From Blastobasis lacticolella (taxonomy: Eukaryota > Arthropoda > Insecta > Lepidoptera > Blastobasidae), in the NCBI GenBank assembly GCA_905147135.1, contig LR990049.1, positions 14,773,428-14,837,427 on the forward strand: a stretch of DNA of 64,000 nt. The letters are read 5' to 3'. Positions 1-50,374 of this stretch are shown piece by piece. Both the position numbers and the translations under genes were made by a program. The notes beneath the pieces were generated by a model. That model was not told the DNA's origin and searched no databases. It worked only from the letters and a program-made list of their open reading frames with translations. Numbering within the stretch: the stretch's first letter is position 1; the number at the start of each line of letters is the position of its first letter.

Positions 1-3000
1 TCTGTTTCCGGAAACAAATAACCTTGTTTTAAAAAAATATTTGAAGCTATTGGATCTACATGGGGTTTTTCAAGGTCGTGCACATGTCTACCATGCAACT
101 CTTTACTTCTCCAAGAATTCAGCTTATTTTTAACTTGCTCGGTAACTGGGATAAATTCTTTTTCTTTATGTTTCAGATTAAGAGGCGTGTAATTATCATC
201 TGTTAAAGTTGTAGCTAGGTGTACAACACTGTCACTTATTTTGCTATAGAAGAAATCTCTCAAATTTTTCAGTTGATTTTGCCAGAGAATGTTTAAATCA
301 ATTAATCCTCTTCCTCCCAGTTCTCTTTTGGTGGATATTCTCTCTATTGCTGACTTCGGGTGTAAGTATTTATGTTTTGTTAGAGTGGTTCTAGTTTTAA
401 TTTCCAGGTTCTTTATATCGGTTTGTGTCCATTTTATTATCCCAAACGAGTATGTTAGTATCGGCGTGGCATATGTATTTATGGCTTTTGTTAAGTTGCG
501 GGCATTAAGCTGTTTTTTACACACTTTATTAACTCTCCTAATGTACTCTGAGGTAAGATCTTTTTTAATCTGCGTGTGGTTTATCGATTTTGTTTGTTGT
601 ATTCCTAAATATTTGTACATTTCATCATTATCCATGGCAGTAATACAGATATCATCACTGATATTGTAATCGCCTTCAATTATTTTTCCCTTCTTTATAT
701 GCAATGTTTTACATTTGTCTAAACCAAAATTCATATTTATGTCTTTACTAAATTCGGCAGTTATTTCGAGCAATTCTTTCATGCCATGATCAGTTTTTCC
801 ATAGAGTTTGATGTCGTCCATGTACATCAGGTGAGTGATTGAAGTGTCGCGGGTAAGTTTATAGCCGTGTTTAGATTTGGAGAGGAGTTGTGAGAGAGGG
901 TTCAGGGCCATACAGAACCACAAAGGGCTGAGGGAATCTCCCTGGAAGATGCCATTTCTAATTTGGATTTGCTCGGTTATTAACTTTGCAGTTTTCACTG
1001 ATAAAGTTAGTGTCGTTCTCCAGTTAGCCATGGCATGTTCCAGGAAAGCTATGATTGAAGGATGAATCTTATATATTTGTAGGACGCGAATCAACCAAGA
1101 ATGCGGAACACTGTCGAAAGCTTTTTTATAATCTATATAAGAAATATTTAGATTTCTATTGTGTTTGTGAGCGTGTTTTAGAACAGTAGAATCTATGATA
1201 AGCTGTTCCTTACATCCTCTGTGGTTCTGTCGGCAGCCTTTCTGTTCTTCAGCTATAATGTTGTGCATTTCTAGGTGGTTAACTACTTTATTGGTTATAC
1301 AAGATGTTATCAGTTTATAGGTAGTGGGTAAACATGTTATAGGCCGGTATTGAGATGGATCTGCAGTATTAAGTGATTTTGGGAGCATTAATGTTATTCC
1401 AGTAGTTAGAAATGGCGGTAGCGGCGTTGTTCCATGGATCAGTTCAGTGACTACTTTAGCAAGACTGCTATGGAGCACCGTGAGATGCTTAAGCCAAAAA
1501 TTTTGTACTCCGTCCAGTCCAGCAGCCTTCCAATTTTTCATTTTGCTTGTAACTGTACATATGTCATCTTCCGTGACATCTGTTAAAACCATTTCTTCTA
1601 TATGGTCCCAATGTTGAGCCTCATCGTTGACCCACTTTGCTGAGCGATTAAATTCTGTCGATTTGTCCCATATTTCTGCCCAATAGTGTCTCAGGTCCTC
1701 CGCACTTGGTATTTCTGTTGAGTTTTGGTTATCCGATCCACTGTTGTGTAACGACCTATAGAACCCTTTTTCATTTGTGTTGAATAGATTATTATTAGTT
1801 TTTCTTTGTAGAGCTTTATTATATCTCCCTAATCGATGTGATTTTAAGGCAAGCTTTTGTTTCAGCGTGTCTAAGTACTCTTGTGGTCTATTGTTTGCTG
1901 GCTCATGAGTGGAATGGATTTTGGTGTTTCTAAATACTGACTCTACTGTATCTGTAACTTTTCTTGACCTATTACCTTTTATGTATTGTGTTAGCCTACC
2001 TATGTTTTTTCTCAATATTTCAATATCCCTTTCTAATCTTGTTTTCCACGTAGGTTTTCCGAAATTTTCTCTGTGTCTGCGGCCTTCAGTGATATTCCGT
2101 TTAACTTCGTAACCCATTTCTTGGCTTATGACTAATGCACTACAATATATAAGTGTGTGTATCTGTGTTAAATCCGAATCTTTGGAGATGAGCTTCGGTA
2201 GAATAACGGTGTTGAAAACTCGCAAAAGTCCGTTCAGTTTTTTATTAACCCTTAGTCTGGGGAGTTTTGGGCGTGTTAGAGGGTCCGTATCTGTAAATTC
2301 TATTAACGTATTTTGTAGTTGTTTTAAAAGTTCTTGGGTATTTGTATTAGTTATGATTGTGTCATTAATGTAGGTGGGGTCACGTTCTGCCGCAGATGTA
2401 TATACAGATCGTTCTGTCTGTGTTTGGGATGATAAAATGGGTGAGTTGAGGGATATATGTAATTCATTTTCGTATTCTGTAGATAATGTGTCCGTTAAAG
2501 TAAGGGATGATAATAAATGCTGCTGTGGGGTTGAATCAACAGAGGACAGTGGGTGAGATATGTATAGTGCTGAAGAGTTGACACGTTCTTCGTCCTCTTT
2601 TAGAAGTGTTGATACTTCCAACTTTATTTGTGTAATAATTGTATCCGATAGAAGTTTATTACGCAGTATTGCTCTCATTTGATCAGCAATACGTTGCTCA
2701 GTCACATTAATATCTGGGTATTCTATTTTAAACCTGTCGAATAGGCGTTTTCTGTACATAGTCTTGTCTGTTTCTAACTTGGTAATAAAATAGTATGTGC
2801 GCATGATAAACAAGTTAACATCATTACTCCATCTCATGCGCACTCGAGGTTTCCCAGCCTTAGTGGACGCGGGTAAAAAGGTATGCACCTCCCGCGCAAC
2901 ATCCAAGTTGGGTATATCTACGTCTATGTGTTCTTCATCCACAGATGCCAATGATGGGGTGTAAGATATTGTACTTGGGCTATAAGGTTCGCTAACGTCT

Positions 3001-3194
3001 GAAATAGCTGGTGATGGACTTCTATATCTATTGTTGGTAATTCTACGACTTCTTCTAATTGTAAGTGTTTCACTCTGTTCTAAGCAATCATGTGGCGTCT
3101 GTGGTGAAGTTAATGAAGAATTACGGACAGATTCCGTGTTTACAACAGTTGATAACTGGGTAACATTTATATTTTTCTTTTTAATTCTTCTCAT
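1..3194 (-). CDS. Reverse transcriptase ORF of R4/Dong-like LINE, N-terminal 1064 aa
   Basis: The frame opens at ATG 3194; an in-frame TGA lies about 55 nt upstream, so this is the first usable Met. Residues ~113-175 (RMRWSNDVNLF..., then NVTEQRIADQMRA) look like a Myb/SANT-type DNA-binding domain; no CCHH zinc finger precedes it. RT motifs follow in order: KAAGLDG near residue 556, QYRPITCLPTTYKLI, SYIDYKKAFDSVPHSW, GIFQGDSLSPLWF, the catalytic YMDD at residues 791-794, FGLDKCKTL and YKYLGI. YMDD is in frame with the start, which supports an unbroken frame. The visible protein ends at GYLFPETD, where such proteins normally continue to a CCHC motif and nuclease. Its role is target-primed reverse transcription of its own RNA. 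Confidence 0.85.
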   Translation of the reverse strand, partial: MRRIKKKNINVTQLSTVVNTESVRNSSLTSPQTPHDCLEQSETLTIRRSRRITNNRYRSPSPAISDVSEPYSPSTISYTPSLASVDEEHIDVDIPNLDVAREVHTFLPASTKAGKPRVRMRWSNDVNLFIMRTYYFITKLETDKTMYRKRLFDRFKIEYPDINVTEQRIADQMRAILRNKLLSDTIITQIKLEVSTLLKEDEERVNSSALYISHPLSSVDSTPQQHLLSSLTLTDTLSTEYENELHISLNSPILSSQTQTERSVYTSAAERDPTYINDTIITNTNTQELLKQLQNTLIEFTDTDPLTRPKLPRLRVNKKLNGLLRVFNTVILPKLISKDSDLTQIHTLIYCSALVISQEMGYEVKRNITEGRRHRENFGKPTWKTRLERDIEILRKNIGRLTQYIKGNRSRKVTDTVESVFRNTKIHSTHEPANNRPQEYLDTLKQKLALKSHRLGRYNKALQRKTNNNLFNTNEKGFYRSLHNSGSDNQNSTEIPSAEDLRHYWAEIWDKSTEFNRSAKWVNDEAQHWDHIEEMVLTDVTEDDICTVTSKMKNWKAAGLDGVQNFWLKHLTVLHSSLAKVVTELIHGTTPLPPFLTTGITLMLPKSLNTADPSQYRPITCLPTTYKLITSCITNKVVNHLEMHNIIAEEQKGCRQNHRGCKEQLIIDSTVLKHAHKHNRNLNISYIDYKKAFDSVPHSWLIRVLQIYKIHPSIIAFLEHAMANWRTTLTLSVKTAKLITEQIQIRNGIFQGDSLSPLWFCMALNPLSQLLSKSKHGYKLTRDTSITHLMYMDDIKLYGKTDHGMKELLEITAEFSKDINMNFGLDKCKTLHIKKGKIIEGDYNISDDICITAMDNDEMYKYLGIQQTKSINHTQIKKDLTSEYIRRVNKVCKKQLNARNLTKAINTYATPILTYSFGIIKWTQTDIKNLEIKTRTTLTKHKYLHPKSAIERISTKRELGGRGLIDLNILWQNQLKNLRDFFYSKISDSVVHLATTLTDDNYTPLNLKHKEKEFIPVTEQVKNKLNSWRSKELHGRHVHDLEKPHVDPIASNIFLKQGYLFPET

Positions 3195-3369
3195 ATAATT
3201 CCCACGAGTTGCAAGGGACAACAGGTCAATCACGGCAGAGCCCTGCGTTCACCGCGACAAGGGTACTTTAAACTGGAGGGCCCCTGATCTCCAGAGTTCG
3301 CATGTTCTAGACTATACTTCCCTATAGCCACGCAGCCCTCGGCACATCCTGTTTCACCTTGGCTTGGGT

Positions 3370-3962: not shown

Positions 3963-4044
3963 TGTTATATTATGCATTGTAAATTGTACCTACTTACGAA
4001 TCATTCTTAATATCTATTTAGTTTGTAAGTTGGTATAACTTCAA

Positions 4045-4308
4045 TTGGCCGTGTGGTGTCCGACAGAGTAGAATAGCACCACCACCATACGCTCGTGGGT
4101 GTCGTACAAGGCGACCAATGTTTTCGAAGCAAAACTTCTGGAGTTTCCGTAGGCTGAAAAATGGCAGCAGCGTTTTCCATTGTTATATTTATAACACTGC
4201 TATCTCCAACCCGCCTGCCAAGCGTGGAGATTATGGCAATAACCTCCCTTTGGCAGAGGGGAGAGGCCTTAAGTCATACAGTAGACTGATATTGGCTGTG
4301 ATGATTAT
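4045..4308 (+). mobile_element. RTE-tailed SINE-like repeat, family A copy 1
   Basis: Starts TTGGCCGTGTGGTGTCCGAC and ends in GGCTGTGATGATTA. It shares its whole length with copies at 9523, 10769, 44721 and 50122. It has no coding capacity. The 3' end (GTAGACTGATATTGGCTGTGATGA) resembles the terminal codons and GATGATGA tail of RTE-clade LINEs, suggesting RTE machinery moved it (inference). Confidence 0.75.
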
Positions 4309-4345
4309 ATATTCAATATCTACTTATTTCGTAGCTTGGTAAACA

Positions 4346-9033: not shown

Positions 9034-9522
9034 TGTGTTTGTATTTACACCAATCACAGCAGCCAATAAATCCAAAACCATTTGTTATTCTAAAGTTCTA
9101 GACTAAGGTTCTAAAGTGTCTAAGTTTGTAATTTTCGCAAAACCAAACAGTAGCAGAGTTGTGGTGAGGTAATCACAGGTCTGTGACAGTGAATGAATTG
9201 GGTACAAAAAATGCTAAACCTGAGTAACTGTAAGACGTAATTCACAAAAAAATTTTGCTGTAAGAATAAACTCTCCGGCTTTATTATTAAAGACTATCTT
9301 TAGGTGACTTGGTTTTGTTGTGATGATGTAGCCAAAAGTTTTTTATAGGTTTAGCGGATACAAAGCATGAGTCACTATTTAATGCGGGTTGCAGGCGTGG
9401 ATGACGTGTCAGAGTAACAATTTTCGAATTTAATATGGTTTTACTTACCTATATTTGTATGCATGTAGAATGCGTGGGCGATGCCCCTGGTATTGCAAAC
9501 GTCCATAGATTTCGGCCGTCCA

Positions 9523-9788
9523 TTGGCCGTGTAGTGTCCGACAAAGTAGAATACGACCAACCCCTTACAATCGTGGGTGTCGTATTAGGCGACTAATGTT
9601 TTTGAGACAAAATATCCACAGTCTCCGGTAACTGGAAAATGGGCAGCAGCGTTTTACATTGTTATTTTTATAACACTCCGATCTCGAACCCGCTTGCCAA
9701 GCGTGGAGTTTATGGCAATAAACTCCTCCCCTTTCGTGGTTGAGGCTCTAAGTCCTGTAGTGGACTGTTATGGGCTGTGATGATGATA
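9523..9788 (+). mobile_element. RTE-tailed SINE-like repeat, family A copy 2
   Basis: Full-length relative of the 4045 copy, from TTGGCCGTGTAGTGTCCGAC to GTGGACTGTTATGGGCTGTG and a GATGATGATA tail. The immediate right flank (CGGTGACTGCTTACCATCAG) looks like an inverted piece of family D. Confidence 0.75.
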
Positions 9789-10182: not shown

Positions 10183-10768
10183 AAAGATTTCTAGTTCTAA
10201 TTACAGTCATGTCACAGTCTAGATGACTAATAATACCCGATTGCACTAAACTTTAGATGACGCATAAGTTGATTTCAGGTATTCTAAACAAGAAAAGCAT
10301 TGCACGAATCACCAATCTTGGGTGAAAACTAAAGTCGCTATACCCGTTTTCACTAAACGTAGGAATCGCCTAAATCCGATGCCCAATAACTTAGGAATTG
10401 CTTACGAAAGAAAATGCGTTCCACCAACCGCTAGGAAATAACTATCGTCGCTAGATAACGCTTAAAGTTAGGAAGTGGATTGGGCGGTACTTAGCCACCT
10501 AGCCATCGCCTAAAAGTACATTGCGGTCTGTTTCTCACAGCAAACTTATCTGACGCAGTGGCCAAAACTGGAACTAAGTGGCGACCCATTTTGAAATTAC
10601 ACTTTGTTGTCAACAACAGCGACGCTGTCACCGGTTCTGATAAGTTTGTGGCACTCTACAGTTTACTAACATCACCGAATCCATAGTAAGTCTTGCCTAG
10701 AGGTGTAGGAGGTTTGGTGAAATAGACCAATTGGATATGGCCATTCCTAAAGACAAGAGTTTCCTAGT

Positions 10769-11030
10769 TCATCATCACAGCCTATAACAGCCCACTGCAG
10801 GACTTAAGGCCTCTTCCACGAAAGGGAAGGTTATTGCCATAATCTCCACCCTTGGCAGGCGGGTTGGAGATCCACAGTGTTATAAATATAACAATGGAAA
10901 ACGCTGCTGCCCATTTTCCAGCCTACGGAGACTCTAGATCTTTCGCCTCGGAAACATTAGTCGCCTTGTACGACACCCACAAGTGTAAGGGGTTGGTGCA
11001 ATTCTACTCTGCCGGACACCACACGGCCAA
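10769..11030 (-). mobile_element. RTE-tailed SINE-like repeat, family A copy 4
   Basis: Inverted full-length copy: starts TCATCATCACAGCCTATAAC (the reversed tail) and ends CCACACGGCCAA. Well conserved against the copies at 44721 and 50122. Confidence 0.75.
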
Positions 11031-11690
11031 GTGTTCCCTAGTTAGGTAATGCTTAATTCGAGTTTAGTGAAAACGGGTGTTTGTCACTCTTACCTTCATG
11101 ACACCGATTTTCTAACGCCTAAATGCTTGGGAACATCTTATGGTGATCACTTAAGCGTCGCCTAAGTTTGCAATAGTGGGTTTAAGAGATAGTCGATAGC
11201 ATCGAAAATGTTAAATAAGAATAAACTTACTTTAGTTCGACTCTGGCATATGACTAGTGATATGACAAATCCATGGCTATGAAATAATTCATAATTATTT
11301 ATTATTATTATTAGTTTTCGACATTTTATTATTATTATGTATATTAATATGATGAAGATAAATTCTGACATAATTTATTACAAATATTATTTTTATATTG
11401 ACATCATTATTGTGTGATTATTGTTATGATAATTATTATCATTTTTTCATTTTATTGACATGGATTATTATTATATTTAAATTTGTATGTAGAAATTAGT
11501 ATTTAAGATCTACATTTAAGTGTTTTTACTGTTATGTTGTGACGTTCATAAGTGTTTCGTCGAAACCTAATTTGAATTAATGATTTTTGAATTTTGAATT
11601 TTGAACAGTCTGGCAACTGGTTTCAGGGAAGACAGGGACAGGTTAAAATAATTATTTTACATACAATTAGTATGGGAACAAATTGAGTTA

Positions 11691-11999: not shown

Positions 12000-12744
12000 T
12001 GAAAGAAAAGATATATAACATGGCATAAAATTTATTGTAATAGGGGTAAAATCGATTTTCTGAGATAAACATTTTATAAAAAGGGAGTATTACAATAAAA
12101 AACTTAAAATTAGAAACAGATCGAGTAAGTACAGCTTAACCTAATACAAGTACGCCTCACATATCCACTTGCTTATCAGATCCACTTTTATAATATTATT
12201 ATTAAAAATTACAAAATTATTTTGCTTAGGTACGAAAAGTAACGTAGGTAAGTATAATATGAGTAGCAAATAATTACGATCAAAAACACATTCGATCGTC
12301 AATACACTATTATTATCAGTATCACACTGGTGTAGTATGCTTAATATCTACTTATTTGTCATTTTCTGACAAAGATTATTATGACGTTACTTTGGATTCG
12401 TTATTTTACCTTTAGATGAAAAAAAAACGAACATTAAATTTAAATTAGTGGCGCCGAGTAAAATCGATTTCTTCGATCGAAAGACATCTCATCGATAATT
12501 AAAATATGGACGGAAGTATACCTTAATTAATATAAATACTACGATATTTACCTAACTATATTTACAAAATGACTTAATTTAAAAAACGAGTATACAAACT
12601 TTTAGCTTAGCTTTGTACCGAGTATTTTGCAAAACCCGAGAGCCCTTATAAAATAAGTCATACCTACTTCAAATCAGTGTATAATACTCAAATCAGTGTA
12701 TAATTAACCAATGAATTAACTCATGACATAATATTATGATGGAC
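12000..12744. other. No gene recognised; left flank of the giant LTR element
   Basis: AT-rich DNA without ORFs above background. A small direct duplication (AAATCAGTGTATAAT twice, 12671-12705) sits about 45 bp outside the LTR element and is the only structure I notice. Confidence 0.55.
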
Positions 12745-13581
12745 CTACTGTAACAGTCTGACCCTTAGGCCAAAATATTTCACGCGAAAAATATCCCACA
12801 AATATGTACTTCGAGTTCGGAAGTCGATACCTTTTTTTAAATAGATTATAGGATCAAGTTATAATTAAACGGCTTTGTTCAAAACTGATCGATCACTGAC
12901 GAGTTGCGAGAGATTCGTAATTATTTTGTTAGTTGGTGTCCATAGGGCGAATCTTTCATATCTGTTCCGCAACTAACGCCATCTGTAGATTTCGATAGAT
13001 ACGATTTGACGAGGTCGCTCAATATCACGTTAACAACGTCATCTATGTGCGGAGTATGGTAACTGTTATACAGTTCTCTCATGTTTGAAATGTGTTTATC
13101 TATTATTTGAGTGTTTTAAAATTATCTTTGTTTTAATACTTATAGGTTTAAATATTTATAGGGTTGTTGAAATCAAAAGAAATCATGTCAATGTGTATGG
13201 CTGTATGAATATAATTTGTGGCCACAAAGCTTAGAGAAAGAAAAAAAGTAAGCATGAGGCCTACCTCCTAAGGTGGGGTGGATTGATAGGCAAGGTCGAG
13301 TCGACACGAACCGTCGGGTTCCGTAGCTGTCTTTCACTATCCATAATTTAAAAGACGAGTAGTTTATGCTGTATTTAAACATATTTTAGGACAGTAAATG
13401 CATCTCATTTTGATGTCATTCAATAGGTACCGATTAAAGAAATGTCTGGTTATCAAATAGGTACGTCGCGAGTAAGACTTGTTGATTGAGGGGTTTTCAT
13501 GTTTCGCTGAAGGAACCCTATAAGGTGGCGTGATCGCTGTGTTGTTTTTGTTCTCGAAAGATCGACAGATTTTTGGAATCG

Positions 13582-13589
13582 ATATATAA
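13582..13589 (+). promoter_or_regulatory. TATA box candidate within 5' LTR
   Basis: GATATATAAGGGAG contains TATATAAG, the best TATA-like motif in this part of the LTR, about 25 bp before the ATG at 13606 and 235 bp before the intron-like donor. Repeated at 21835-21842 in the 3' LTR. No transcript evidence is available. Confidence 0.4.
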
Positions 13590-13605
13590 GGGAGTGGAAG
13601 GTTCG

Positions 13606-13984
13606 ATGGGGGCTTTTTTTCGGTTCAACAGTCGACGAAGGCGGACGTCCAGGCTTTTTCTCGGTTCAACAGTCGACGAAGGCGGACGTCCAGGTTTTTT
13701 TTCTCTGATCAACATTCGACGAAGGCGGACGTCCGGGCGGGACGTATTCAATACATTTGGGGTTTTCCACTCGAGCTTTAGCTTCGAGGCAGTAGATTCA
13801 GTGTGGTACAAAACCAGGTATGTTAGTGTTTTAGAACAGTGATGAAAAATACTAATTGTTTGTTTTTGTTTCAGGGACCCCTTGGCAAGGCATTGCACAC
13901 TGCCCTTGCTTATGCTTTCAGGTCCTACTAAGGTTGAAGACCTTAGGCCGTTTGATTCGGACAGCAAATGGCTGGATGTTACAT
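13606..13984 (+). CDS. Possible spliced small ORF in LTR (13606-13817 joined to 13875-13984)
   Basis: ATG at 13606 opens a frame with repeated RRRRTS-type segments. At 13817 a donor CCAG|GTATGT is followed by a TACTAAT branch-like motif, a T-rich tract and TTTCAG at 13874. Removing these 57 nt keeps the frame open to TAA at 13984, giving about 106 residues ending KWLDVT. A short intron with donor, branch point and acceptor is a better signal than the ORF, which is Arg-rich because of the tandem repeats. The opposite strand is also open here. The product is unrecognised; it could be a non-coding transcript. Confidence 0.3.
13613..13740 (+). repeat. Tandem array of ~42-bp units in 5' LTR
   Basis: Three units, each a T-rich run followed by CGACGAAGGCGGACGTCC, starting at about 13631, 13672 and 13715. 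The third is most diverged. Duplicate array at 21866-21993. Confidence 0.85.
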
Positions 13985-14750
13985 AATATTCCATTATTAA
14001 CCTTTTGTTCCGATTGGAATTAAGTAATTGTCTAGTATCTTTCTCTGGAATTTTTGTGTGACATTCATAGATCGTCTGACTTGGAATTTAGGCACTACGA
14101 AAGGATCTGGGATTCGTCAAGTGTTTCCACGCAAGGTTGCAAGGCCCTCGCCTTCGCTTCCCAACAGTAAGCCCCGTAGTGCCGAGGTTCCGAGGTCTTG
14201 TCACACAATGTATTCGGCATGTCCCCAGGCAGTATCATGTCGGATATTCTTAGGAATAGGTACAACTTCTGGCTACACTGGTCAGACCCACCACTGACTG
14301 GCCCAGGAGACGATAGGGAATACCTTAGTACTTGGTTGAGCGATCTCGGTCGCTATTCCAGTGCTGAAAGTTAGGTTTAGCTAGTCTTTAATTTAGATAT
14401 GCATAGGACTTATGTATGGGACACTTACATCACACTTACACAGTAAACGGGGAATTTATTTGCACAAGGATATGCTTAGGCTTCGTCTATTGGGATAAAG
14501 AAAGGGGTAGGCCCAAAAGTAGTTCGCTTAGGTTATCTTTTAAATAAACAAAAATCGACTCATCAAGTATTGTAGGAATTTAGGCGTAGATTAATATATT
14601 CATATTTCGTTATATATCCACTAAATAATCATTAAATCTGTAAAATAATACGGAATTCCTGAAGAGTTTTGGTTTCGGAGAATTTTATGAAATACGACCG
14701 ATCTAATAGTGGTAGCATATTTCGCCGCGCGTTAAATAAGTTAAAGTTGC

Positions 14751-14818
14751 TAGTCTAGCGAACGTTCGACTTTACCGCGGAGTCAACCGACGGACCCGGG
14801 TTCGATCCTCAGAGCGGA
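14751..14818 (+). other. tRNA-like box B inside LTR
   Basis: CCCGGGTTCGATCCTCAGAG includes a perfect pol III box B core (GGTTCGATCC, ~14799). Box A is weak and the acceptor stem does not close, so this is not a tRNA gene. It may be a captured tRNA fragment. Repeated at 23004-23071. Confidence 0.35.
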
Positions 14819-15680
14819 ACATCATAAGTTTTAAATATGGAATTTTAAATTACTTTTTATGAAATTTCAGCCGCGTCACATTTAATACGGTTATTAATTA
14901 TCGTTTATACGTACTTCAATCTTAGGTTGTCCTTTACTAAATTATCTAAAAGTAACGCGGTAGACGGCTTCTGTTTTGTACTATGTACAGTTATTATACT
15001 CTATTATTTGAAAAGGATTGAAACAATTACCGTATAAATCAATGTAATAAAGGAATAGATTTGAGAGAGATAGAGAGAGAGATGAGCGAGAGTGAGTGCG
15101 TTAGATGTACTAAAGATTTTCTAGTCCGAATGGATTTAGGGGCGAGAAATGAATATCATACATTCCTTCGTTGTCAATCAGTATGTACCTACGTGAGAAA
15201 GACAGAGCGTGCGTTTTTGGTCTATAGTATGGACGATGTTAGTGAGTATGTTATGTGTGTATGAGTGCGTGTCAGTATTAGTATGAGCGCGAATGTTAGT
15301 TGCCTTTAAGTAAATTAATAAAGTTGTAGGCCATTATTTGTATTAAAACAAGTAGGCTATTAGGAGTTGATGTGTTCTCACATCTTGAGAATAAATTTAT
15401 AACGAGCATTTATTAATTCGCTATTTTGAACGTTTAGGGCTGTTTGGAATGAAATACTTTAGAAGTGGGATGACTTCATTGAGCATTGTAATTTGGATTT
15501 TAAATTCTTAAATTATTTTCTTTATAACTTTAATGAGTAGATATTACTTTAAAGATATTTATTAGAGATGGCATGGAACATGATTTTGATAAAATAATAT
15601 TTAGTATCCTTCTATCGGGTAGCATACGTGACAGATCGGGTTTTATGATTGGGGTCCTGTTGGAACACCAGTATTTTAGG

Positions 15681-16215
15681 GCTTAGTCCGCGCAATCCAT
15701 TTATGGGTGAGTTGGTGTTATGGTGATGTGGAGAGATTACGGTCTTGAGATATCATTATAGCAGCTAACCTATCTGAATCTAAGGTATGTTGCGAAAACG
15801 TCCTAAAATCAGTCTTTTCTCTTCTAAATCATCTTAGAGCTTAGTCCGCGCAAGTCAATTTTTGGGCGAGTTGGTGTTATCGCGATGTTAATAGATTGCG
15901 GTCTTGAGACATCTGGATAGCAGCTGACCAGTCTAAACCTAATGCATGTTGCGAAAAGGTTCTAAAATGTATTGGCAAAGCTGGAGTCCGCATAGACAAA
16001 CTTTTGGGTGTACCGTTGTTATCGTGATATTGAGGGACTTCGGTCTTAAGATGTCCGGATAGCAGTCTGTCAATCCAAATGTATTGCACATAGCGAAAAC
16101 AGCGATGTTAATGTTTGTTTGTTGTTTTGATGTTGAGGAAGCTCGCTTCCAATATAACGAGATAGCAGCTAGTCTTTCTGAATCCCATGGTTTTTGCAAA
16201 ACCTTTCTAGAACTT
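15681..16215 (+). repeat. Imperfect ~150-bp tandem repeats in 5' LTR
   Basis: Units start with CTTAGTCCGCGCAA (15681), CTTAGTCCGCGCAA (15839) and CTGGAGTCCGCATAG (15981), with a decayed fourth. Each carries GAGTTGGTGTTAT, CGGTCTTGAGA, GATAGCAGCT and TGTTGCGAAAA in the same order. Periods are about 158 and 142 bp. Duplicate at 23934-24468. Confidence 0.8.
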
Positions 16216-17540
16216 AGTGGTGTGCCGATGGGACAACTTTAATACGACCAAATCTGTACGTTGGGATTGCTTAGGACCAATGAATAAAGTTCATTGTTAT
16301 TTACTTTCATAACTAGATGGTTCAACAGTATACAGACCCCTGATACAGTTGTAACATCAATAATATTCTATATATAGAAATAAACTTTGGAGCTACCTTT
16401 TTATACCAACTGGAGTCCAGCATTTGAAATATTTAATTGAGAATACCTGAAGTTACAGGCCTCAATTACCAGTTGTTTATTACAATATTAATTATTTTTA
16501 TAACTAATTTAAATTAGCCTTGAGCTATTTATCGATACTGAAGATATCTATCATTTGTACAACTTACTTACTTGGGAGATTTATATGAAGAACTTGATGT
16601 GATACATCAAATACATTTGGGACTACCAATTGAAATCATGATCCTGTTCGCCTGCTGTTTTTACATAATTTCAAGGATTGAGTTTTGTACCCGTGAGATG
16701 TTTGGCTGTGTGAGAAGTTGGCCGCTTCGTTCCTCACATGTAGGTTCCATTTCCGGAGCGGTGGTAGCCTAAAATATACCTGCACTACCTTACGGACTGA
16801 CCTATGGGACTCTATCTCTTTCCCTTTAATTATTACTAAAATATTGTGGCTTTAGCCATTTGGAACAACACCATGGTTCTCTGGAACTTATCCATCACTG
16901 GATTTTGAAGAAATATTACAAACTGAAAACTTTATTATGCATAATCTGCATTTGTGTATGGAGCACTCTCTCCAGGGCTAACTGCCGATTCTATACTATT
17001 CTACCTATACTATATCTGTGCTGCTGAATTCGGGCCCTTTATTGTTGTCGAAGGAACACTGTTGTAGTCCGCCTTTGTATGCTTATGAGGTATCCAAATC
17101 TACATCGTCGAGTCTATTGGACCCTGCATACGCGATTGACTCAACCTGTGGTGTATCCTAAGACTTGTCATTATGCTCATGAGTAAGCTCTGGTACATGA
17201 TATACGTATCTACAACAAGAAGATGTGGAGAGACCTGGAGTAAGCTACATGCTTTATTGAATTAATCACACCTACAATTATTATATGGATATGATCCACA
17301 GGCATTGGTTGTTGTTGTTGTGCCCTCTTACATTATATATTATGAAATATTAATTGACTTGACAAAGACCTAGAATCTTGTGCCATCTCTTAAATAAATA
17401 TCAGGGTAGGATGAGGATGTCTCTGGTTGACTCATATAGTAAGCTGCGGAGTGAAGCATGGGCTACGAGTAGCGAAGTTCATGCTGGAGTCAGTTACCTG
17501 GCTTTGGAGCAGCTTACCCCTCCTCTAATGAGGGGGGCCC

Positions 17541-17696
17541 TGTTTGTTTCCCTTGAACATATTATCTGTTTGTTTCCCTTGAACATATTATCTGTTTGTT
17601 TCCCTTGGACGTAATATCTGTTTGTTTCCCTTGGACATAATATCCGTTTATTTTCCCTTACACATAATATCTGTTTATTTCCCTTAGACCTAATAT
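17541..17696 (+). repeat. 26-bp minisatellite near LTR 3' end
   Basis: Six units of TGTTTGTTTCCCTTGAACAT plus ATTATC, progressively diverged to the right (17541, 17567, 17593, 17619, 17645, 17672). Duplicate at 25794-25949. Confidence 0.9.
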
Positions 17697-18010
17697 ATAA
17701 ATCTGATTTTAAATTTAGCTATAAAACTCTTGGAAAATTAATCTCTAGTATATCTTCTCTTGTATTTATTTAATTATATAATTTCATACCTGTTTATACT
17801 TCTCCACTCTAAAAGCATCGGGGTTACTAACATCATAACGTAGAGTTCCATAGACGATCACAAATGGCCTTATTTAGTTTAAAACGTTAATAATAGATTC
17901 TATAGTCTTACGGTTTAGAAATGGTAGTTTTAGAGCTTAGGTTTCAGTGTGAATGAGCGTGTGTGTGAAAGTATGAGAGAGTCTGTTTTGCTGAGAGGGC
18001 GAACGTTACA

Positions 18011-21001
18011 ATATTGGTAAGCGTGACCAGGATATTACCACTGCTATATCATCATCTGTTTTATCATCATCATCACAAATATAATCGTCAACTGTGACGA
18101 TATTTATACCATAAAAAACTTGTAATTTACACGAGGTTAGTGGCTTTCTTCAAGAGAGCACAATTTGTTGTTCGTGAAATGGAGAGAGTGGAAGTATTAA
18201 ACAGGTTATTCCTAAAATTATGAGCAAAATATTTGTAAATCTTCTATATTGACATTATTTTGTATTTCTGTCAGAGTAATGATAATAAATTTACAGCATT
18301 TCGGACAAATCAATAAGTCGTTTAGGATGTTGCGCAATTGTCGTTTTTAGGCCCAATAACAGTTGAATTGTTTTAGAGGGAAAACGTGTGAAACGGTTTT
18401 TCGTATAAATTGCTATGAGTGGCCATCATAGTTATTTGGTTTAGAGAAGCCGTAGATCGCAACCCTGTGAAATAATTTTCCTGGACAGGTGACCGAGTAA
18501 AGTTAGTTTTTAACTTATTTAAACCTAGTACAACGAAAATGTCATCAAAATTTACCAATTATTTACTTCATCGATCTCAATTACAGGAACTAGGTTGTAC
18601 ATGCTTTTAAAGGATAAGGAAAATAGCTCATATTAACACGTAAACGTTTACAGGATTCACTCTTCTTACTTATCATTAGAGAATGTGTACATGTATGATT
18701 GTGATGGAATGAAGTTGGTACTAATTAAAATATATACAAGTTGACTCTTGAACATTTAGGTATTTGAAAAACACGTAATATTGTGACGCCAAAAGTTGTC
18801 ATTAACGTCTTAAAATTCCTAAGGTGACCGACAGCATTCATAGGGTTAGCAATTCATTCGTTCCTTATATTTAGGTAGGAGGTTTGTCTTAAGCATATAT
18901 GCTTTTTAGGTATTATACGGTTCCTCGCGCTTGTGTGTTCCGAGTATTTCTGGATAGTTAAAAAAATCATTCGTATGATCAGTTCTCAATTAATAAGAAT
19001 CCTAGCGATCGTAATATACTTTTTAAGGTTCGCAGAATAGTCCTACCTTATAGACTTTCCTCTTGAGTCGCACTGTCTGTTGTTGGGGACCGCGTTGGGG
19101 TCCGTTGCGTGGTTTAATAGTTACTGCGTTGCGTTGTTAGTTATTGTGTTGTGTACTAAGTATGTATAGAAGTAGCGGTGAACACTTTATTTCCATTATT
19201 GGCCCACTTTCCTGTTGTCTGTTAGGTTAGAGTAACAATATAATCCAAACATAAATAAAGAAATTTCCACCAACGGTCATTTTTAAGTATAGGTGTTTTT
19301 GTATGCGGGTCGGAGTTACTTAACGTATACGAGAGATGGCGCTTCTGGTTTTATATATCGCGCTATTGACGTTTGCCATGACTTTAGGAGATGTATAATC
19401 ATAAAATTGATTTAACTTTTTATAGCTGGGGTATACAAGCAACATGCGAGGTGGAGGAGCTGCCAATTAGTGGCGCTAATCCGAAATATATCGTATAAAA
19501 ACTTGAGATTAACGTCATAAGTTTTATAAATTTATTTACTCGTAGTTAGGCAAATAAATTATTGGTGCATTTGTGGATGTTCCAACACATCAAAGAAAAA
19601 TAGGTACATAAATCTGATGGTGTAAAATTCTAATAATTTCTAACGAATAGTCTCTTATAAGTTATATCATGGCTACGTAAAAATAAAATAAAAAATTATA
19701 AACAAAATCTGCATAGGTAATTTAAAAGCATTTAGAAATGCAATGAATTTATGCACAAATATGTTTAATGTTATATGTGGTCACATGTTTGTAGAAATAG
19801 CAAAGTTTGTAGTATAAAACACACCACTTCAATGAATCTTAGGTGCACGCGCATCATAGGTATTTCACGTATTTTATTTACTTTTCGCCGCGTTGGCTAG
19901 TCTTTACTTTGCTTGCTGTCTGTCACAAATTACAAAATATTATCTGTGATTTAATTTTGCTTAAGTAATGAGTAAGGTAAAACCTCTAATCACTTTTGCA
20001 GCTAGTTCGCGCGTTGTAGTCTTTTTCTTGTCCCCTAGTTTGCCCAAAATATTGAAACTAACGAAAGTCGCAAGACATAGAATCGTCAGCAATCGGTGAA
20101 CAAAGCATAAAGCGGTGAAGAATACTACATACACTCATGAATCACGGGTGGATTGCAGTTTTGTGTGCGATTCGAATGTGTCTTTAAAGCTAATTTAAAT
20201 AGGCACTTATTAAACAATACTTTAGGTACCATTATCTGAACATTCGAAATATTTTATGATCCTGAACTTCTTAGACATGCCCAGAATTGAAGAGCCTTTG
20301 ACCTCTATGTAATTAGGCTATGCTGCCGTTTATTGTTGTTTGACTAAAATCCATATTAAATTTTATCAATTTTAACATTATTAGGTATAAACATTTTTAA
20401 CATATAGGTAATAAAACTTCATTATAATAAGTTTACAGATGCAAATCTAGACAGGTCTGGAAGGTTTCTTTTTATCCGCACGGTGTTTCTGGTGTAAGCT
20501 ATTGTGCTGCCCTCTATAGTTAACGCACGCTCTCTATGATCTTTAAAAATGCATTATTTGTTTTTCTCTTTTTATTTTGCTACTTGCGCAAAATGTAGTG
20601 GTGGACCGGGAGCTGGAATGGGTTTACCCACCAGTCAACTCGACCGCGACGTGTCTGTTTTAACGTAATCTGAATTGCAGTTCGTCTGACTTAACACATT
20701 TGTGTAACACAAGTGTAGGTACATGTTCATTCAAAATAACTGAAGCTTACGACTAGGGCATGAAGTGACTTAAAAGTAGTGCCTTGGTAAAAAAAAATTT
20801 TGTTATTAGCAAACTAAATCAAACATAGTTAAATATTTATGATAATTTTATAGACAAATAAACGGTTGATCGAAAACTCGGATAAACAATTGATTAAAAT
20901 TATACCTTGAAACATTTTGGTTACTTTAGAAAATATTTAGATAAATAGTACTTAGACGAATTTTTATTCGCTTTTAATGTTCATAAAAATTCAGGGGCGA
21001 T
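18011..21001 (+). other. Non-coding interior of LARD-like element
   Basis: The longest frame here is about 61 codons (18373-18558, minus strand) and resembles nothing. A TGG at 18015, four bases after the LTR, could open a primer-binding site, but I cannot match it to a particular tRNA. Just before the 3' LTR, AGGGGCGA (20994-21001 region) is a short imperfect polypurine stretch. A TCATC-rich segment lies at 18049-18075. Confidence 0.7.
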
Positions 21002-24000
21002 TGTAACAGTCTGACCCTTAGGCCAAAATATTTCACGCGAAAAATATCCCACAAATATGTACTTCGAGTTCGGAAGTCGATACCTTTTTTTAAATAGATT
21101 ATAGGATCAAGTTATAATTAAACGGCTTTGTTCAAAACTGATCGATCACTGACGAGTTGCGAGAGATTCGTAATTATTTTGTTAGTTGGTGTCCATAGGG
21201 CGAATCTTTCATATCTGTTCCGCAACTAACGCCATCTGTAGATTTCGATAGATACGATTTGACGAGGTCGCTCAATATCACGTTAACAACGTCATCTATG
21301 TGCGGAGTATGGTAACTGTTATACAGTTCTCTCATGTTTGAAATGTGTTTATCTATTATTTGAGTGTTTTAAAATTATCTTTGTTTTAATACTTATAGGT
21401 TTAAATATTTATAGGGTTGTTGAAATCAAAAGAAATCATGTCAATGTGTATGGCTGTATGAATATAATTTGTGGCCACAAAGCTTAGAGAAAGAAAAAAA
21501 GTAAGCATGAGGCCTACCTCCTAAGGTGGGGTGGATTGATAGGCAAGGTCGAGTCGACACGAACCGTCGGGTTCCGTAGCTGTCTTTCACTATCCATAAT
21601 TTAAAAGACGAGTAGTTTATGCTGTATTTAAACATATTTTAGGACAGTAAATGCATCTCATTTTGATGTCATTCAATAGGTACCGATTAAAGAAATGTCT
21701 GGTTATCAAATAGGTACGTCGCGAGTAAGACTTGTTGATTGAGGGGTTTTCATGTTTCGCTGAAGGAACCCTATAAGGTGGCGTGATCGCTGTGTTGTTT
21801 TTGTTCTCGAAAGATCGACAGATTTTTGGAATCGATATATAAGGGAGTGGAAGGTTCGATGGGGGCTTTTTTTCGGTTCAACAGTCGACGAAGGCGGACG
21901 TCCAGGCTTTTTCTCGGTTCAACAGTCGACGAAGGCGGACGTCCAGGTTTTTTTTCTCTGATCAACATTCGACGAAGGCGGACGTCCGGGCGGGACGTAT
22001 TCAATACATTTGGGGTTTTCCACTCGAGCTTTAGCTTCGAGGCAGTAGATTCAGTGTGGTACAAAACCAGGTATGTTAGTGTTTTAGAACAGTGATGAAA
22101 AATACTAATTGTTTGTTTTTGTTTCAGGGACCCCTTGGCAAGGCATTGCACACTGCCCTTGCTTATGCTTTCAGGTCCTACTAAGGTTGAAGACCTTAGG
22201 CCGTTTGATTCGGACAGCAAATGGCTGGATGTTACATAATATTCCATTATTAACCTTTTGTTCCGATTGGAATTAAGTAATTGTCTAGTATCTTTCTCTG
22301 GAATTTTTGTGTGACATTCATAGATCGTCTGACTTGGAATTTAGGCACTACGAAAGGATCTGGGATTCGTCAAGTGTTTCCACGCAAGGTTGCAAGGCCC
22401 TCGCCTTCGCTTCCCAACAGTAAGCCCCGTAGTGCCGAGGTTCCGAGGTCTTGTCACACAATGTATTCGGCATGTCCCCAGGCAGTATCATGTCGGATAT
22501 TCTTAGGAATAGGTACAACTTCTGGCTACACTGGTCAGACCCACCACTGACTGGCCCAGGAGACGATAGGGAATACCTTAGTACTTGGTTGAGCGATCTC
22601 GGTCGCTATTCCAGTGCTGAAAGTTAGGTTTAGCTAGTCTTTAATTTAGATATGCATAGGACTTATGTATGGGACACTTACATCACACTTACACAGTAAA
22701 CGGGGAATTTATTTGCACAAGGATATGCTTAGGCTTCGTCTATTGGGATAAAGAAAGGGGTAGGCCCAAAAGTAGTTCGCTTAGGTTATCTTTTAAATAA
22801 ACAAAAATCGACTCATCAAGTATTGTAGGAATTTAGGCGTAGATTAATATATTCATATTTCGTTATATATCCACTAAATAATCATTAAATCTGTAAAATA
22901 ATACGGAATTCCTGAAGAGTTTTGGTTTCGGAGAATTTTATGAAATACGACCGATCTAATAGTGGTAGCATATTTCGCCGCGCGTTAAATAAGTTAAAGT
23001 TGCTAGTCTAGCGAACGTTCGACTTTACCGCGGAGTCAACCGACGGACCCGGGTTCGATCCTCAGAGCGGAACATCATAAGTTTTAAATATGGAATTTTA
23101 AATTACTTTTTATGAAATTTCAGCCGCGTCACATTTAATACGGTTATTAATTATCGTTTATACGTACTTCAATCTTAGGTTGTCCTTTACTAAATTATCT
23201 AAAAGTAACGCGGTAGACGGCTTCTGTTTTGTACTATGTACAGTTATTATACTCTATTATTTGAAAAGGATTGAAACAATTACCGTATAAATCAATGTAA
23301 TAAAGGAATAGATTTGAGAGAGATAGAGAGAGAGATGAGCGAGAGTGAGTGCGTTAGATGTACTAAAGATTTTCTAGTCCGAATGGATTTAGGGGCGAGA
23401 AATGAATATCATACATTCCTTCGTTGTCAATCAGTATGTACCTACGTGAGAAAGACAGAGCGTGCGTTTTTGGTCTATAGTATGGACGATGTTAGTGAGT
23501 ATGTTATGTGTGTATGAGTGCGTGTCAGTATTAGTATGAGCGCGAATGTTAGTTGCCTTTAAGTAAATTAATAAAGTTGTAGGCCATTATTTGTATTAAA
23601 ACAAGTAGGCTATTAGGAGTTGATGTGTTCTCACATCTTGAGAATAAATTTATAACGAGCATTTATTAATTCGCTATTTTGAACGTTTAGGGCTGTTTGG
23701 AATGAAATACTTTAGAAGTGGGATGACTTCATTGAGCATTGTAATTTGGATTTTAAATCCTTAAATTATTTTCTTTATAACTTTAATGAGTAGATATTAC
23801 TTTAAAGATATTTATTAGAGATGGCATGGAACATGATTTTGATAAAATAATATTTAGTATCCTTCTATCGGGTAGCATACGTGACAGATCGGGTTTTATG
23901 ATTGGGGTCCTGTTGGAACACCAGTATTTTAGGGCTTAGTCCGCGCAATCCATTTATGGGTGAGTTGGTGTTATGGTGATGTGGAGAGATTACGGTCTTG

Positions 24001-26263
24001 AGATATCATTATAGCAGCTAACCTATCTGAATCTAAGGTATGTTGCGAAAACGTCCTAAAATCAGTCTTTTCTCTTCTAAATCATCTTAGAGCTTAGTCC
24101 GCGCAAGTCAATTTTTGGGCGAGTTGGTGTTATCGCGATGTTAATAGATTGCGGTCTTGAGACATCTGGATAGCAGCTGACCAGTCTAAACCTAATGCAT
24201 GTTGCGAAAAGGTTCTAAAATGTATTGGCAAAGCTGGAGTCCGCATAGACAAACTTTTGGGTGTACCGTTGTTATCGTGATATTGAGGGACTTCGGTCTT
24301 AAGATGTCCGGATAGCAGTCTGTCAATCCAAATGTATTGCACATAGCGAAAACAGCGATGTTAATGTTTGTTTGTTGTTTTGATGTTGAGGAAGCTCGCT
24401 TCCAATATAACGAGATAGCAGCTAGTCTTTCTGAATCCCATGGTTTTTGCAAAACCTTTCTAGAACTTAGTGGTGTGCCGATGGGACAACTTTAATACGA
24501 CCAAATCTGTACGTTGGGATTGCTTAGGACCAATGAATAAAGTTCATTGTTATTTACTTTCATAACTAGATGGTTCAACAGTATACAGACCCCTGATACA
24601 GTTGTAACATCAATAATATTCTATATATAGAAATAAACTTTGGAGCTACCTTTTTATACCAACTGGAGTCCAGCATTTGAAATATTTAATTGAGAATACC
24701 TGAAGTTACAGGCCTCAATTACCAGTTGTTTATTACAATATTAATTATTTTTATAACTAATTTAAATTAGCCTTGAGCTATTTATCGATACTGAAGATAT
24801 CTATCATTTGTACAACTTACTTACTTGGGAGATTTATATGAAGAACTTGATGTGATACATCAAATACATTTGGGACTACCAATTGAAATCATGATCCTGT
24901 TCGCCTGCTGTTTTTACATAATTTCAAGGATTGAGTTTTGTACCCGTGAGATGTTTGGCTGTGTGAGAAGTTGGCCGCTTCGTTCCTCACATGTAGGTTC
25001 CATTTCCGGAGCGGTGGTAGCCTAAAATATACCTGCACTACCTTACGGACTGACCTATGGGACTCTATCTCTTTCCCTTTAATTATTACTAAAATATTGT
25101 GGCTTTAGCCATTTGGAACAACACCATGGTTCTCTGGAACTTATCCATCACTGGATTTTGAAGAAATATTACAAACTGAAAACTTTATTATGCATAATCT
25201 GCATTTGTGTATGGAGCACTCTCTCCAGGGCTAACTGCCGATTCTATACTATTCTACCTATACTATATCTGTGCTGCTGAATTCGGGCCCTTTATTGTTG
25301 TCGAAGGAACACTGTTGTAGTCCGCCTTTGTATGCTTATGAGGTATCCAAATCTACATCGTCGAGTCTATTGGACCCTGCATACGCGATTGACTCAACCT
25401 GTGGTGTATCCTAAGACTTGTCATTATGCTCATGAGTAAGCTCTGGTACATGATATACGTATCTACAACAAGAAGATGTGGAGAGACCTGGAGTAAGCTA
25501 CATGCTTTATTGAATTAATCACACCTACAATTATTATATGGATATGATCCACAGGCATTGGTTGTTGTTGTTGTGCCCTCTTACATTATATATTATGAAA
25601 TATTAATTGACTTGACAAAGACCTAGAATCTTGTGCCATCTCTTAAATAAATATCAGGGTAGGATGAGGATGTCTCTGGTTGACTCATATAGTAAGCTGC
25701 GGAGTGAAGCATGGGCTACGAGTAGCGAAGTTCATGCTGGAGTCAGTTACCTGGCTTTGGAGCAGCTTACCCCTCCTCTAATGAGGGGGGCCCTGTTTGT
25801 TTCCCTTGAACATATTATCTGTTTGTTTCCCTTGAACATATTATCTGTTTGTTTCCCTTGGACGTAATATCTGTTTGTTTCCCTTGGACATAATATCCGT
25901 TTATTTTCCCTTACACATAATATCTGTTTATTTCCCTTAGACCTAATATATAAATCTGATTTTAAATTTAGCTATAAAACTCTTGGAAAATTAATCTCTA
26001 GTATATCTTCTCTTGTATTTATTTAATTATATAATTTCATACCTGTTTATACTTCTCCACTCTAAAAGCATCGGGGTTACTAACATCATAACGTAGAGTT
26101 CCATAGACGATCACAAATGGCCTTATTTAGTTTAAAACGTTAATAATAGATTCTATAGTCTTACGGTTTAGAAATGGTAGTTTTAGAGCTTAGGTTTCAG
26201 TGTGAATGAGCGTGTGTGTGAAAGTATGAGAGAGTCTGTTTTGCTGAGAGGGCGAACGTTACA
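21002..26263 (+). repeat. 3' LTR (5,262 bp) of LARD-like element
   Basis: Direct copy of 12749-18010 with identical length. The only mismatch I found by eye is T at 15506 versus C at 23759. All internal arrays and signals recur 8,253 bp further right: TATA ~21835, intron-like 22071-22127, box B ~23051, ~150-bp units 23934-24468 and 26-bp array 25794-25949. Such identity indicates a recent insertion or gene conversion. Confidence 0.88.
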
Positions 26264-26267
26264 CTAC

Positions 26268-27051: not shown

Positions 27052-47753
<20,702 letters not shown>

Positions 47754-47814
47754 TTTGTACGGGTTCGCGCTGCTTAATCTCACAGTAGCGTGACAATCAC
47801 AATTGGTTAGTTCT

Positions 47815-50121: not shown

Positions 50122-50374
50122 TCATCATCACAGCCCGTAATAGTCCACTGCAGGACTTAGGGCCTCTCCCACAAAAGGGGAGGTTATTGCCATAATCTCC
50201 ACGCTTGGCAGGCGGGTTGGAGATCGCAGTGTTTAAATATAACAATGGAAAATGCTGCTGCCCATTTTCCAGACTACGGAGACTTTTCATCTTTTCCTCG
50301 AAAATATTAGTCGCCTTGTACAACACCCATGAGCATAACAGGTTGGTGCTATTCTACTCTGCCGGTCACGGCCA
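50122..50374 (-). mobile_element. RTE-tailed SINE-like repeat, family A copy 6
   Basis: Inverted copy: CTCATCATCACAGCCCGTAA to GGTCACGGCCA, with a small deletion in the 5' terminal CACCACACGG segment. Confidence 0.75.

What the first reader, a model, noticed from the sequence alone, without database searches (positions are those of the whole stretch)
12745..26267. A LARD-like element with 5.26-kb LTRs in an insect genome
Seen directly: two 5,262-bp direct repeats with TGTAAC...GTTACA ends, a 2,991-bp interior without gag or pol, and flanking CTAC on both sides. Large retrotransposon derivatives with ~5-kb LTRs and ~3-kb non-coding cores are known from grasses; I know of no standard insect counterpart. 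LTRs longer than the interior, with no coding, raise the question of which element mobilises it.
Basis: partly seen in the sequence, partly recalled or inferred. Interest (0 to 1): 0.9.

Follow-up and report, generated by a model that had tools for sequence, protein, structure and literature searches.

The report
Noncoding giant-LTR retrotransposon family in Lepidoptera
A moth or butterfly chromosome carries a recently inserted jumping element that has no genes of its own and is mostly two huge terminal repeats; relatives are scattered through the same genome, so it most likely borrows another element's enzymes to copy itself.

Summary
In detail: two 5,262-bp LTRs (1 mismatch), a 2,991-bp non-coding interior and a CTAC target duplication. 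The host is lepidopteran and its 577-Mb assembly was searchable. The element is one copy of a dispersed family ("A"). All 8 full copies read through both flanks have their own perfect 4-bp duplication and LTR pairs differing at 0-4 sites; 7 solo LTRs also have duplications. In the 8 interiors measured no stop-free run exceeds 88 codons. Related non-coding families B and D (D: LTR 6,164 bp, interior 1,696 bp) share with A similar LTR ends, a tRNA-His-type primer site, a ~70-nt leader block and the polypurine-tract region, the signals needed for copying in trans. This fits the structural definition of a LARD. No autonomous partner was found; 25 of 44 exact tRNA-His primer sites remain unassigned. 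"LARD" annotations exist for Drosophila, bumblebee and Culex; my limited searches listed none with 5-6-kb LTRs. Anomaly: 7 of 9 A copies read, this one included, carry an altered primer site yet spread recently. New lepidopteran LARD clade, not a new kind of system.

The parts
12745..12748 (.). 5' target-site duplication CTAC
12749..18010 (+). 5' LTR, 5,262 bp, TGTAAC...GTTACA
13611..13738 (+). tandem repeat inside LTR (41-bp unit, about 3 copies); indels here differ between family copies
15676..15968 (+). tandem repeat inside LTR (159-bp unit, 1.8 copies)
17540..17696 (+). tandem repeat inside LTR (26-bp unit, 6 copies); indels here differ between family copies
18011..21001 (+). non-coding interior, 2,991 bp
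18015..18033 (+). primer-binding site, altered tRNA-His form TGGTAAGCGTGACCAGGAT (canonical form in two sister copies TGGTGCCGTGACCAGGAT)
18140..18212 (+). leader block conserved between families A, B and D; candidate packaging or dimerisation signal (function inferred)
20957..21001 (+). conserved 45-nt 3' interior tail with polypurine tract TTCAGGGGCGAT at 20990-21001
21002..26263 (+). 3' LTR, 5,262 bp, 1 mismatch to 5' LTR (23759)
26264..26267 (.). 3' target-site duplication CTAC

Best explanation
It is a young insertion of a non-autonomous, non-coding LTR retrotransposon family of LARD type in a lepidopteran. SHOWN: LTR-interior-LTR structure, independent 4-bp target duplications, conserved LTR ends, polypurine-tract region and leader block, and a tRNA-His-type primer site. 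INFERRED: an LTR promoter makes an RNA that carries the primer site, leader block and polypurine tract. The Gag, reverse transcriptase and integrase of an unidentified autonomous element package, copy and insert it in trans. The 4-bp duplication would suit a Gypsy-type helper (general knowledge, not tested). The very long LTRs close together then recombine, leaving solo LTRs and LTR-interior tandem arrays. Fast loss of full copies in that way would explain why all full copies read are young although they come from diverged source lineages; LTR gene conversion is not excluded.
For: Other copies: of 193 LTR candidates 40 were scored, and of 162 interior candidates 40 were scored; all those scored match. 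Target duplications: 8 of 8 full copies and 7 solo LTRs, 10 different words among 15. LTR pairs: 12 mismatches in 43,893 bp over 8 copies, while copies differ from one another by 2-5% in the LTR. Mosaicism, as expected from copying two co-packaged RNAs: the window and C5b interiors are 99.5% identical but their LTRs 97.0%; C4 is 97.8% identical to the window over the interior, but 88% in one 300-column block while the other blocks are 96-100%. Primer site: 2 of 9 held A copies have the exact 18-nt tRNA-His site, and 15 tRNA-His genes with the matching acceptor were found; 44 exact sites genome-wide against 0 in the reversed control. Polypurine-tract junction: 52 exact against 0. Leader block: top 60-nt window of the A-B interior comparison, 0.95 against a mean of 0.50 with gaps counted as mismatches, and 81-85% identical to D. 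Passages of PMC10886601 say that for animal Helenus elements only autonomous Gypsy elements matched the primer region, one of them in a bivalve using tRNA-His.
Against: No helper element was identified, so mobilisation in trans is inferred. Seven of 9 held A copies and 12 of 15 D places (8 of 11 D loci, one locus being a five-unit array) have a primer site that pairs poorly with the tRNA-His 3' end, which standard tRNA priming should rewrite. The leader block is not unique in its conservation: other windows of the A-B interior reach 0.90-0.92. The leader's predicted RNA fold is ordinary (z -0.89). Only the best part of the candidates was scored, so copy numbers are lower bounds and the 8 full copies read are biased towards the closest relatives. 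No transcript data were seen.
Confidence: 0.88

Rival explanations
1. The 5.26-kb direct repeat is an assembly or segmental duplication, not an LTR pair.
For: The repeats are almost identical. One locus, C5:3.50-3.54 Mb, really is a tandem segmental duplication carrying a solo LTR.
Against: The repeat ends coincide with TGTAAC/GTTACA. 8 of 8 full copies lie in different flanks with their own 4-bp duplication. The interior differs from the LTRs and is itself dispersed.
Confidence: 0.02
2. The elements are recent internal-deletion derivatives of one autonomous family with the same LTRs.
For: Many non-autonomous LTR elements arise this way (general knowledge). The 25 unassigned tRNA-His primer sites could include such an element.
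Against: The A, B, C and D interiors read have no long frame. No gag or pol remnant was found in the window copy by Pfam in six frames; for B, C and D only frame lengths were examined. Of 52 polypurine-tract junctions, 41 are A or B by position (one of these 5.7 kb from its interior match), 10 by sequence, and 1 was not checked. A and B interiors are homologous over most of B's length and non-coding, so the non-coding state probably predates their split.
Confidence: 0.07
3. Full copies are old, and their LTRs look identical because of gene conversion between them.
For: All 8 pairs are nearly identical while copies differ by 2-5%.
Against: Target duplications are still perfect in 8 of 8. Solo LTRs and tandem arrays suggest that recombination between LTRs tends to remove or multiply interiors.
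Confidence: 0.08

Closest known systems
LARD elements of grasses (Kalendar et al. 2004, Genetics; not held here, known from citing passages in PMC6431247, PMC7215508 and PMC3286476 and from recall; Sukkula and Dasheng recalled)
   Same: LTRs of several kb, non-coding core of about 3 kb, primer site and polypurine tract kept, dispersed, presumed to move in trans.
   Different: Lepidopteran host, sequence relation not tested, tRNA-His-type primer site, 4-bp duplication; in D the LTR (6,164 bp) is 3.6 times the interior (1,696 bp); altered primer sites in most copies read.
Culex non-coding LTR families cqUNK_1-45 (PMC3286476, section on non-autonomous elements read)
   Same: Insect, no coding capacity, clear primer site and polypurine tract, highly similar LTRs, no known master copy.
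   Different: LTRs of 125-931 bp, tandem repeats between the LTRs, mostly 5-bp duplications, other tRNAs; none with tRNA-His in Table 2.
Insect repeats labelled LARD by annotation pipelines or libraries (Drosophila PMC9005704, bumblebees PMC4414376; passages read)
   Same: Same label.
   Different: Drosophila LARD is described as one of the oldest superfamilies; in bumblebees LARDs were left out of detailed inspection unless they carried coding features. The passages read gave no LTR length.
Cassandra tandem arrays in plants (PMC7215508, passages read)
   Same: Non-coding LTR element forming LTR-interior tandem arrays.
   Different: Cassandra is a TRIM with a 5S-derived promoter in its LTRs; here units are 7.9-8.7 kb.

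Membership tests
LARD (large retrotransposon derivative) | Long LTRs (several kb) with TG...CA ends | tested here: met
   5,262 bp here; 5,445-5,661 bp at 9 further loci
LARD (large retrotransposon derivative) | Internal domain of a few kb without gag or pol | tested here: met
   2,962-3,066 bp in 8 copies, longest stop-free run 61-88 codons; no Pfam domain in the window copy
LARD (large retrotransposon derivative) | Primer-binding site and polypurine tract retained | tested here: met
   Last 45 nt of the interior identical in 9 of 9 A copies; primer site exact tRNA-His in 2 of 9, altered in 7 of 9 including this one
LARD (large retrotransposon derivative) | Dispersed copies with independent target duplications | tested here: met
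   8 of 8 full copies; 6 of 8 single LTRs (2 not resolved) plus one more solo LTR
LARD (large retrotransposon derivative) | Conserved RNA secondary structure of the core | tested here: inconclusive
   Only the first 230 nt of one copy were folded, z -0.89; no covariation test was made
LARD (large retrotransposon derivative) | Mobilised in trans by an autonomous element | not testable with these tools
   No helper identified; 25 of 44 tRNA-His primer-site places unassigned
Autonomous Gypsy-type LTR retrotransposon | gag-pol between the LTRs | tested here: not met
TRIM | Very short element with LTRs of a few hundred bp | tested here: not met
   Element is 13.5 kb

The most novel reading that the evidence does not exclude
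A long-lived clade of LTR elements (A, B, D) has diversified while purely non-coding, keeping only LTR ends, primer site, a ~70-nt leader block and the polypurine-tract region. Many of its members prime reverse transcription from something other than normal mature tRNA-His: they carry an altered site with extra bases around the tRNA discriminator position, and in D one base of it is free (A, C or G). None of the 15 tRNA-His genes found encodes this altered site, yet it is present in 7 of 9 A copies read and 8 of 11 D loci.
Probability: 0.3. Interest if true: 0.72.

Novelty: new variant of a known kind. Interest (0 to 1): 0.52.

Why it matters
LARDs were described in plants, and the question of which enzymes move elements that are almost all LTR has been hard to answer. 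This genome offers at least 8 young full copies, tens of further matches, and three related non-coding families that share only short signals, so the minimal signals for mobilisation in trans can be read by comparison. The altered primer site in most A and D copies read asks directly how reverse transcription starts. Tandem LTR-interior arrays of up to seven units suggest a route from retrotransposon to satellite-like DNA.

Tried and rejected
The C5:3.50-3.54 Mb locus, with LTRs 16.66 kb apart, looked like an autonomous copy with an 11-kb interior. It is a solo LTR (duplication GTAC) inside a host segment repeated in tandem; six-frame Pfam scans of the first 11-kb stretch gave only one weak match, LIM at E 0.034, below its cut-off. 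C17, with LTRs 13.0 kb apart, has the family interior interrupted by other sequence. A 25-base match to the LTR start in viral contig L001 sits in a phage-like contig and was taken as chance. The leader and polypurine-tract patterns gave 0 matches in viral contigs, and the LTR-start and leader patterns gave 0 in prokaryote contigs. A conserved antisense protein in the LTR was rejected. A tRNA-His gene variant as source of the altered primer site was sought with one pattern for the T-arm end: 15 of 15 matches had the standard acceptor; variants with a changed T arm would be missed. No known RNA family and no tRNA was found in the window. A count of all LTR 3' ends and of A copies with the altered primer site did not complete by the tool. 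Notebook corrections: the entry says the altered site is in 8 of 10 held A copies; one search shows 7 of 9. It also says family D has no ORF of 147 aa or more; one search lists stop-to-stop frames of 146, 109 and 108 codons, all lying in the LTR part of the piece.
Full report
OBSERVATION. The window holds a complete LTR architecture. The 5' LTR is 12749-18010 and the 3' LTR 21002-26263, both 5,262 bp with one mismatch. The interior is 18011-21001 and CTAC lies on both sides. Six-frame Pfam scans of LTR and interior gave nothing above a curated cut-off. The longest stop-free run in the interior is 61 codons; 99 of 100 Markov shuffles reach that.

HOST. The 202-aa ORF at 47175-47783 (-) has 37 relatives; the four with organism names are Papilio xuthus, Diatraea saccharalis, Leptidea sinapis and Euphydryas editha (67-73% identity). 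The host is therefore lepidopteran. The window lies in a 577-Mb assembly of 45 contigs.

A DISPERSED FAMILY. The first 1,500 bp of the LTR gave 193 candidates, of which the tool scored 40, all matching at 90-100%. By position these 40 are 12 loci with two LTRs (24 hits; 11 of them spaced 8.2-8.7 kb, one 13.0 kb), five hits in one array on C3, three hits in one duplicated segment on C5, and eight single LTRs. The first 1,500 bp of the interior gave 162 candidates, 40 scored. Eight full copies were read through both flanks: the window copy, C17, C5 (2.13 Mb, "C5b"), C16, C4 (22.13 Mb), C11, C12 (1.03 Mb) and C25 (12.45 Mb). Their duplications are CTAC, AAGT, GTAT, CTAC, ATAA, TCGC, ATGT and TCGC, 8 of 8 perfect. 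A ninth (C3, 22.73 Mb) was cut at its 3' end. Of eight single LTRs, six are solo LTRs with perfect duplications; for two the 3' end was not found in the fetched piece. The C5 segment holds a seventh solo LTR (GTAC).

AGE AND LOSS. LTR pairs differ at 1, 4, 2, 0, 2, 1, 2 and 0 sites, 12 in 43,893 bp. With 2.9e-9 mutations per site per generation (Heliconius value, recalled) the window copy would be about 33,000 generations old (Poisson range 0.8-183 thousand). Yet LTRs of different copies differ by 2-5% and interiors by up to 7%, so several lineages have moved recently, unless LTRs were homogenised. Long LTRs with a short interior should recombine easily. Solo LTRs and tandem arrays fit this: C3 20.40-20.46 Mb has seven interiors at an 8.69-8.70-kb period, and family D on C14 has five units at 8,531 bp. 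Two interiors in tandem occur at C4 16.65 Mb, C30 5.32 Mb and C30 20.44 Mb. These arrays are known from match positions; they were not read. That recombination made them is inference.

MOSAICS AND LTR UNITS. Interior and LTR disagree on relationships. The window and C5b copies are 99.5% identical in the interior and 97.0% in the LTR; C11 and C25 are 99.6% identical in the interior but have different primer sites. This is what template switching between two RNAs in one particle would give (inference). All 10 other LTRs aligned (9 loci) carry an extra unit of about 260-300 bp at the LTR 5' end that the window copy lacks; the solo LTR at C9 17.16 Mb had no match to that unit either.

PRIMER SITE. 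Two of nine held A copies have TGGTGCCGTGACCAGGAT just inside the LTR, the exact complement of the 3' 18 nt of tRNA-His; seven, including the window copy, have TGGTAAGCGTGACCAGGAT. Fifteen tRNA-His genes were found by one pattern, all with the standard acceptor. The exact 18-mer occurs 44 times, 0 in the reversed control. By position and sequence these are A 5, B 3, C or C-like 7, D 4 and unassigned 25. In D, 3 of 15 leader-block places have the exact site and 12 an altered one, TGGNTTAGCCGTGACC with N = A, C or G; counted as loci, 3 and 8 of 11, since one locus is a five-unit array. One B-like locus (L114) also has a changed site. Because primer sites are normally rewritten from the primer in each cycle (general knowledge), persistence of altered sites in recently spread copies is not explained.

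RELATED NON-CODING FAMILIES. B (L034, L035, L067 and others) has interiors of 2,122 and 2,179 bp, about 72-75% similar to A over the longest aligned parts. D (C6 21.10 Mb and others) has a 1,696-bp interior and a 6,164-bp LTR by coordinates; its longest stop-to-stop frames over the 7,450 bases read are 146, 109 and 108 codons, all in the LTR part. C (L032, L033 and others) shares the primer site, GTTACA end and a similar polypurine tract but no longer similarity; its interior is 1,893 bp. None of the four 4-kb pieces of B and C has an ORF of 100 aa. LTR ends are TGTAAC...GTTACA in A and B and TGTGAC...GGTACA in D. A, B and D share a leader block (window 18140-18212), the top 60-nt window of the A-B comparison (0.95 against a mean of 0.50, gaps counted as mismatches; the next separate windows reach 0.90-0.92) and 81-85% identical to D. 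They also share the interior tail ending TTCAGGGGCGA(T/A). The exact junction TTCAGGGGCGATTGTA occurs 52 times, 0 in control. By position 41 belong to A or B loci (one 5.7 kb from its interior match), 10 fetched ones are A (1) or B (9), and 1 was not checked. So no coding element with this junction was seen.

TARGET SITES. Fifteen duplications use 10 words. CTAC occurs 4 times (binomial P 2e-7, about 6e-5 after allowing for 256 words), and 8 of 15 end in AC against 0.84 expected from the window's composition. The integrase seems to prefer certain targets.

MECHANISM. The elements keep what a helper needs to see: LTR ends, primer site, leader block, polypurine tract. The most likely course is transcription from the LTR, packaging and reverse transcription by a helper's proteins, and integration with a 4-bp stagger. 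The helper is not identified. Of the 40 primer-site neighbourhoods examined over 390 nt, three had frames over 100 codons (L051 105, L055 102, L060 115), but 390 nt cannot settle coding. L050 and L051 look by eye like host exons.

LITERATURE. Kalendar 2004 is not held; LARD definitions are from citing passages and recall. Searches for LARD or non-autonomous LTR elements with Lepidoptera, insect, Drosophila, butterfly or moth terms, and for tRNA-His primer sites in insects, listed no paper whose title or abstract start points to insect LTR elements with 5-6-kb LTRs. Each listing showed 12-20 of 24-315 papers, and only the passages named were read, so this is weak evidence of absence. Insect use of the label LARD exists.

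VERDICT. This is a real, young, multi-copy, non-coding LTR retrotransposon of LARD type, one of at least three related non-coding families in a lepidopteran. The kind is known. The host, the size of the LTRs relative to the interior, and the altered primer sites are the new points.

Noticed in passing
window 3-3233 (-): Open frame of over 1,000 codons with a reverse transcriptase domain (RVT_1, E 1.1e-29), running off the window start; apparently a LINE-type element, unrelated to the LTR element.
   Followed up: partly
window 4041-4309, 9519-9788, 10765-11032, 44718-44983, 50122-50369: A ~265-bp interspersed repeat family in both orientations, 79-93% identical.
   Followed up: no
G000 C5:3499400-3539399 (L012-L015): Host segment of ~16.66 kb with a solo LTR (duplication GTAC), three LTR copies in tandem: a recent segmental duplication.
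   Followed up: yes
G000 C14:12721198-12755412: Tandem array of family D, five leader blocks at an 8,531-bp period, each with the same altered primer-site start.
   Followed up: partly
L050, L051: Exact tRNA-His primer-site sequence within 400 bases of cysteine-rich frames that look by eye like host exons.
   Followed up: no
15 insertion sites: Target preference: CTAC in 4 of 15 duplications, NNAC in 8 of 15.
   Followed up: partly
window 12749; The LTR 5' end is a ~290-bp unit that is doubled in all 10 other LTRs aligned but single in the window copy.
   Followed up: partly
window 13518-13994 (-) and homologous LTR region: Minus strand of the LTR is unusually open (189 stop-free codons here; 145-167 in shifted frames in 4 other copies), but no single frame is kept.
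   Followed up: partly
L001 6750-6774: A 25-base exact match to the LTR 5' junction (window 12743-12767) in a phage-like metagenome contig, taken as chance.
   Followed up: partly
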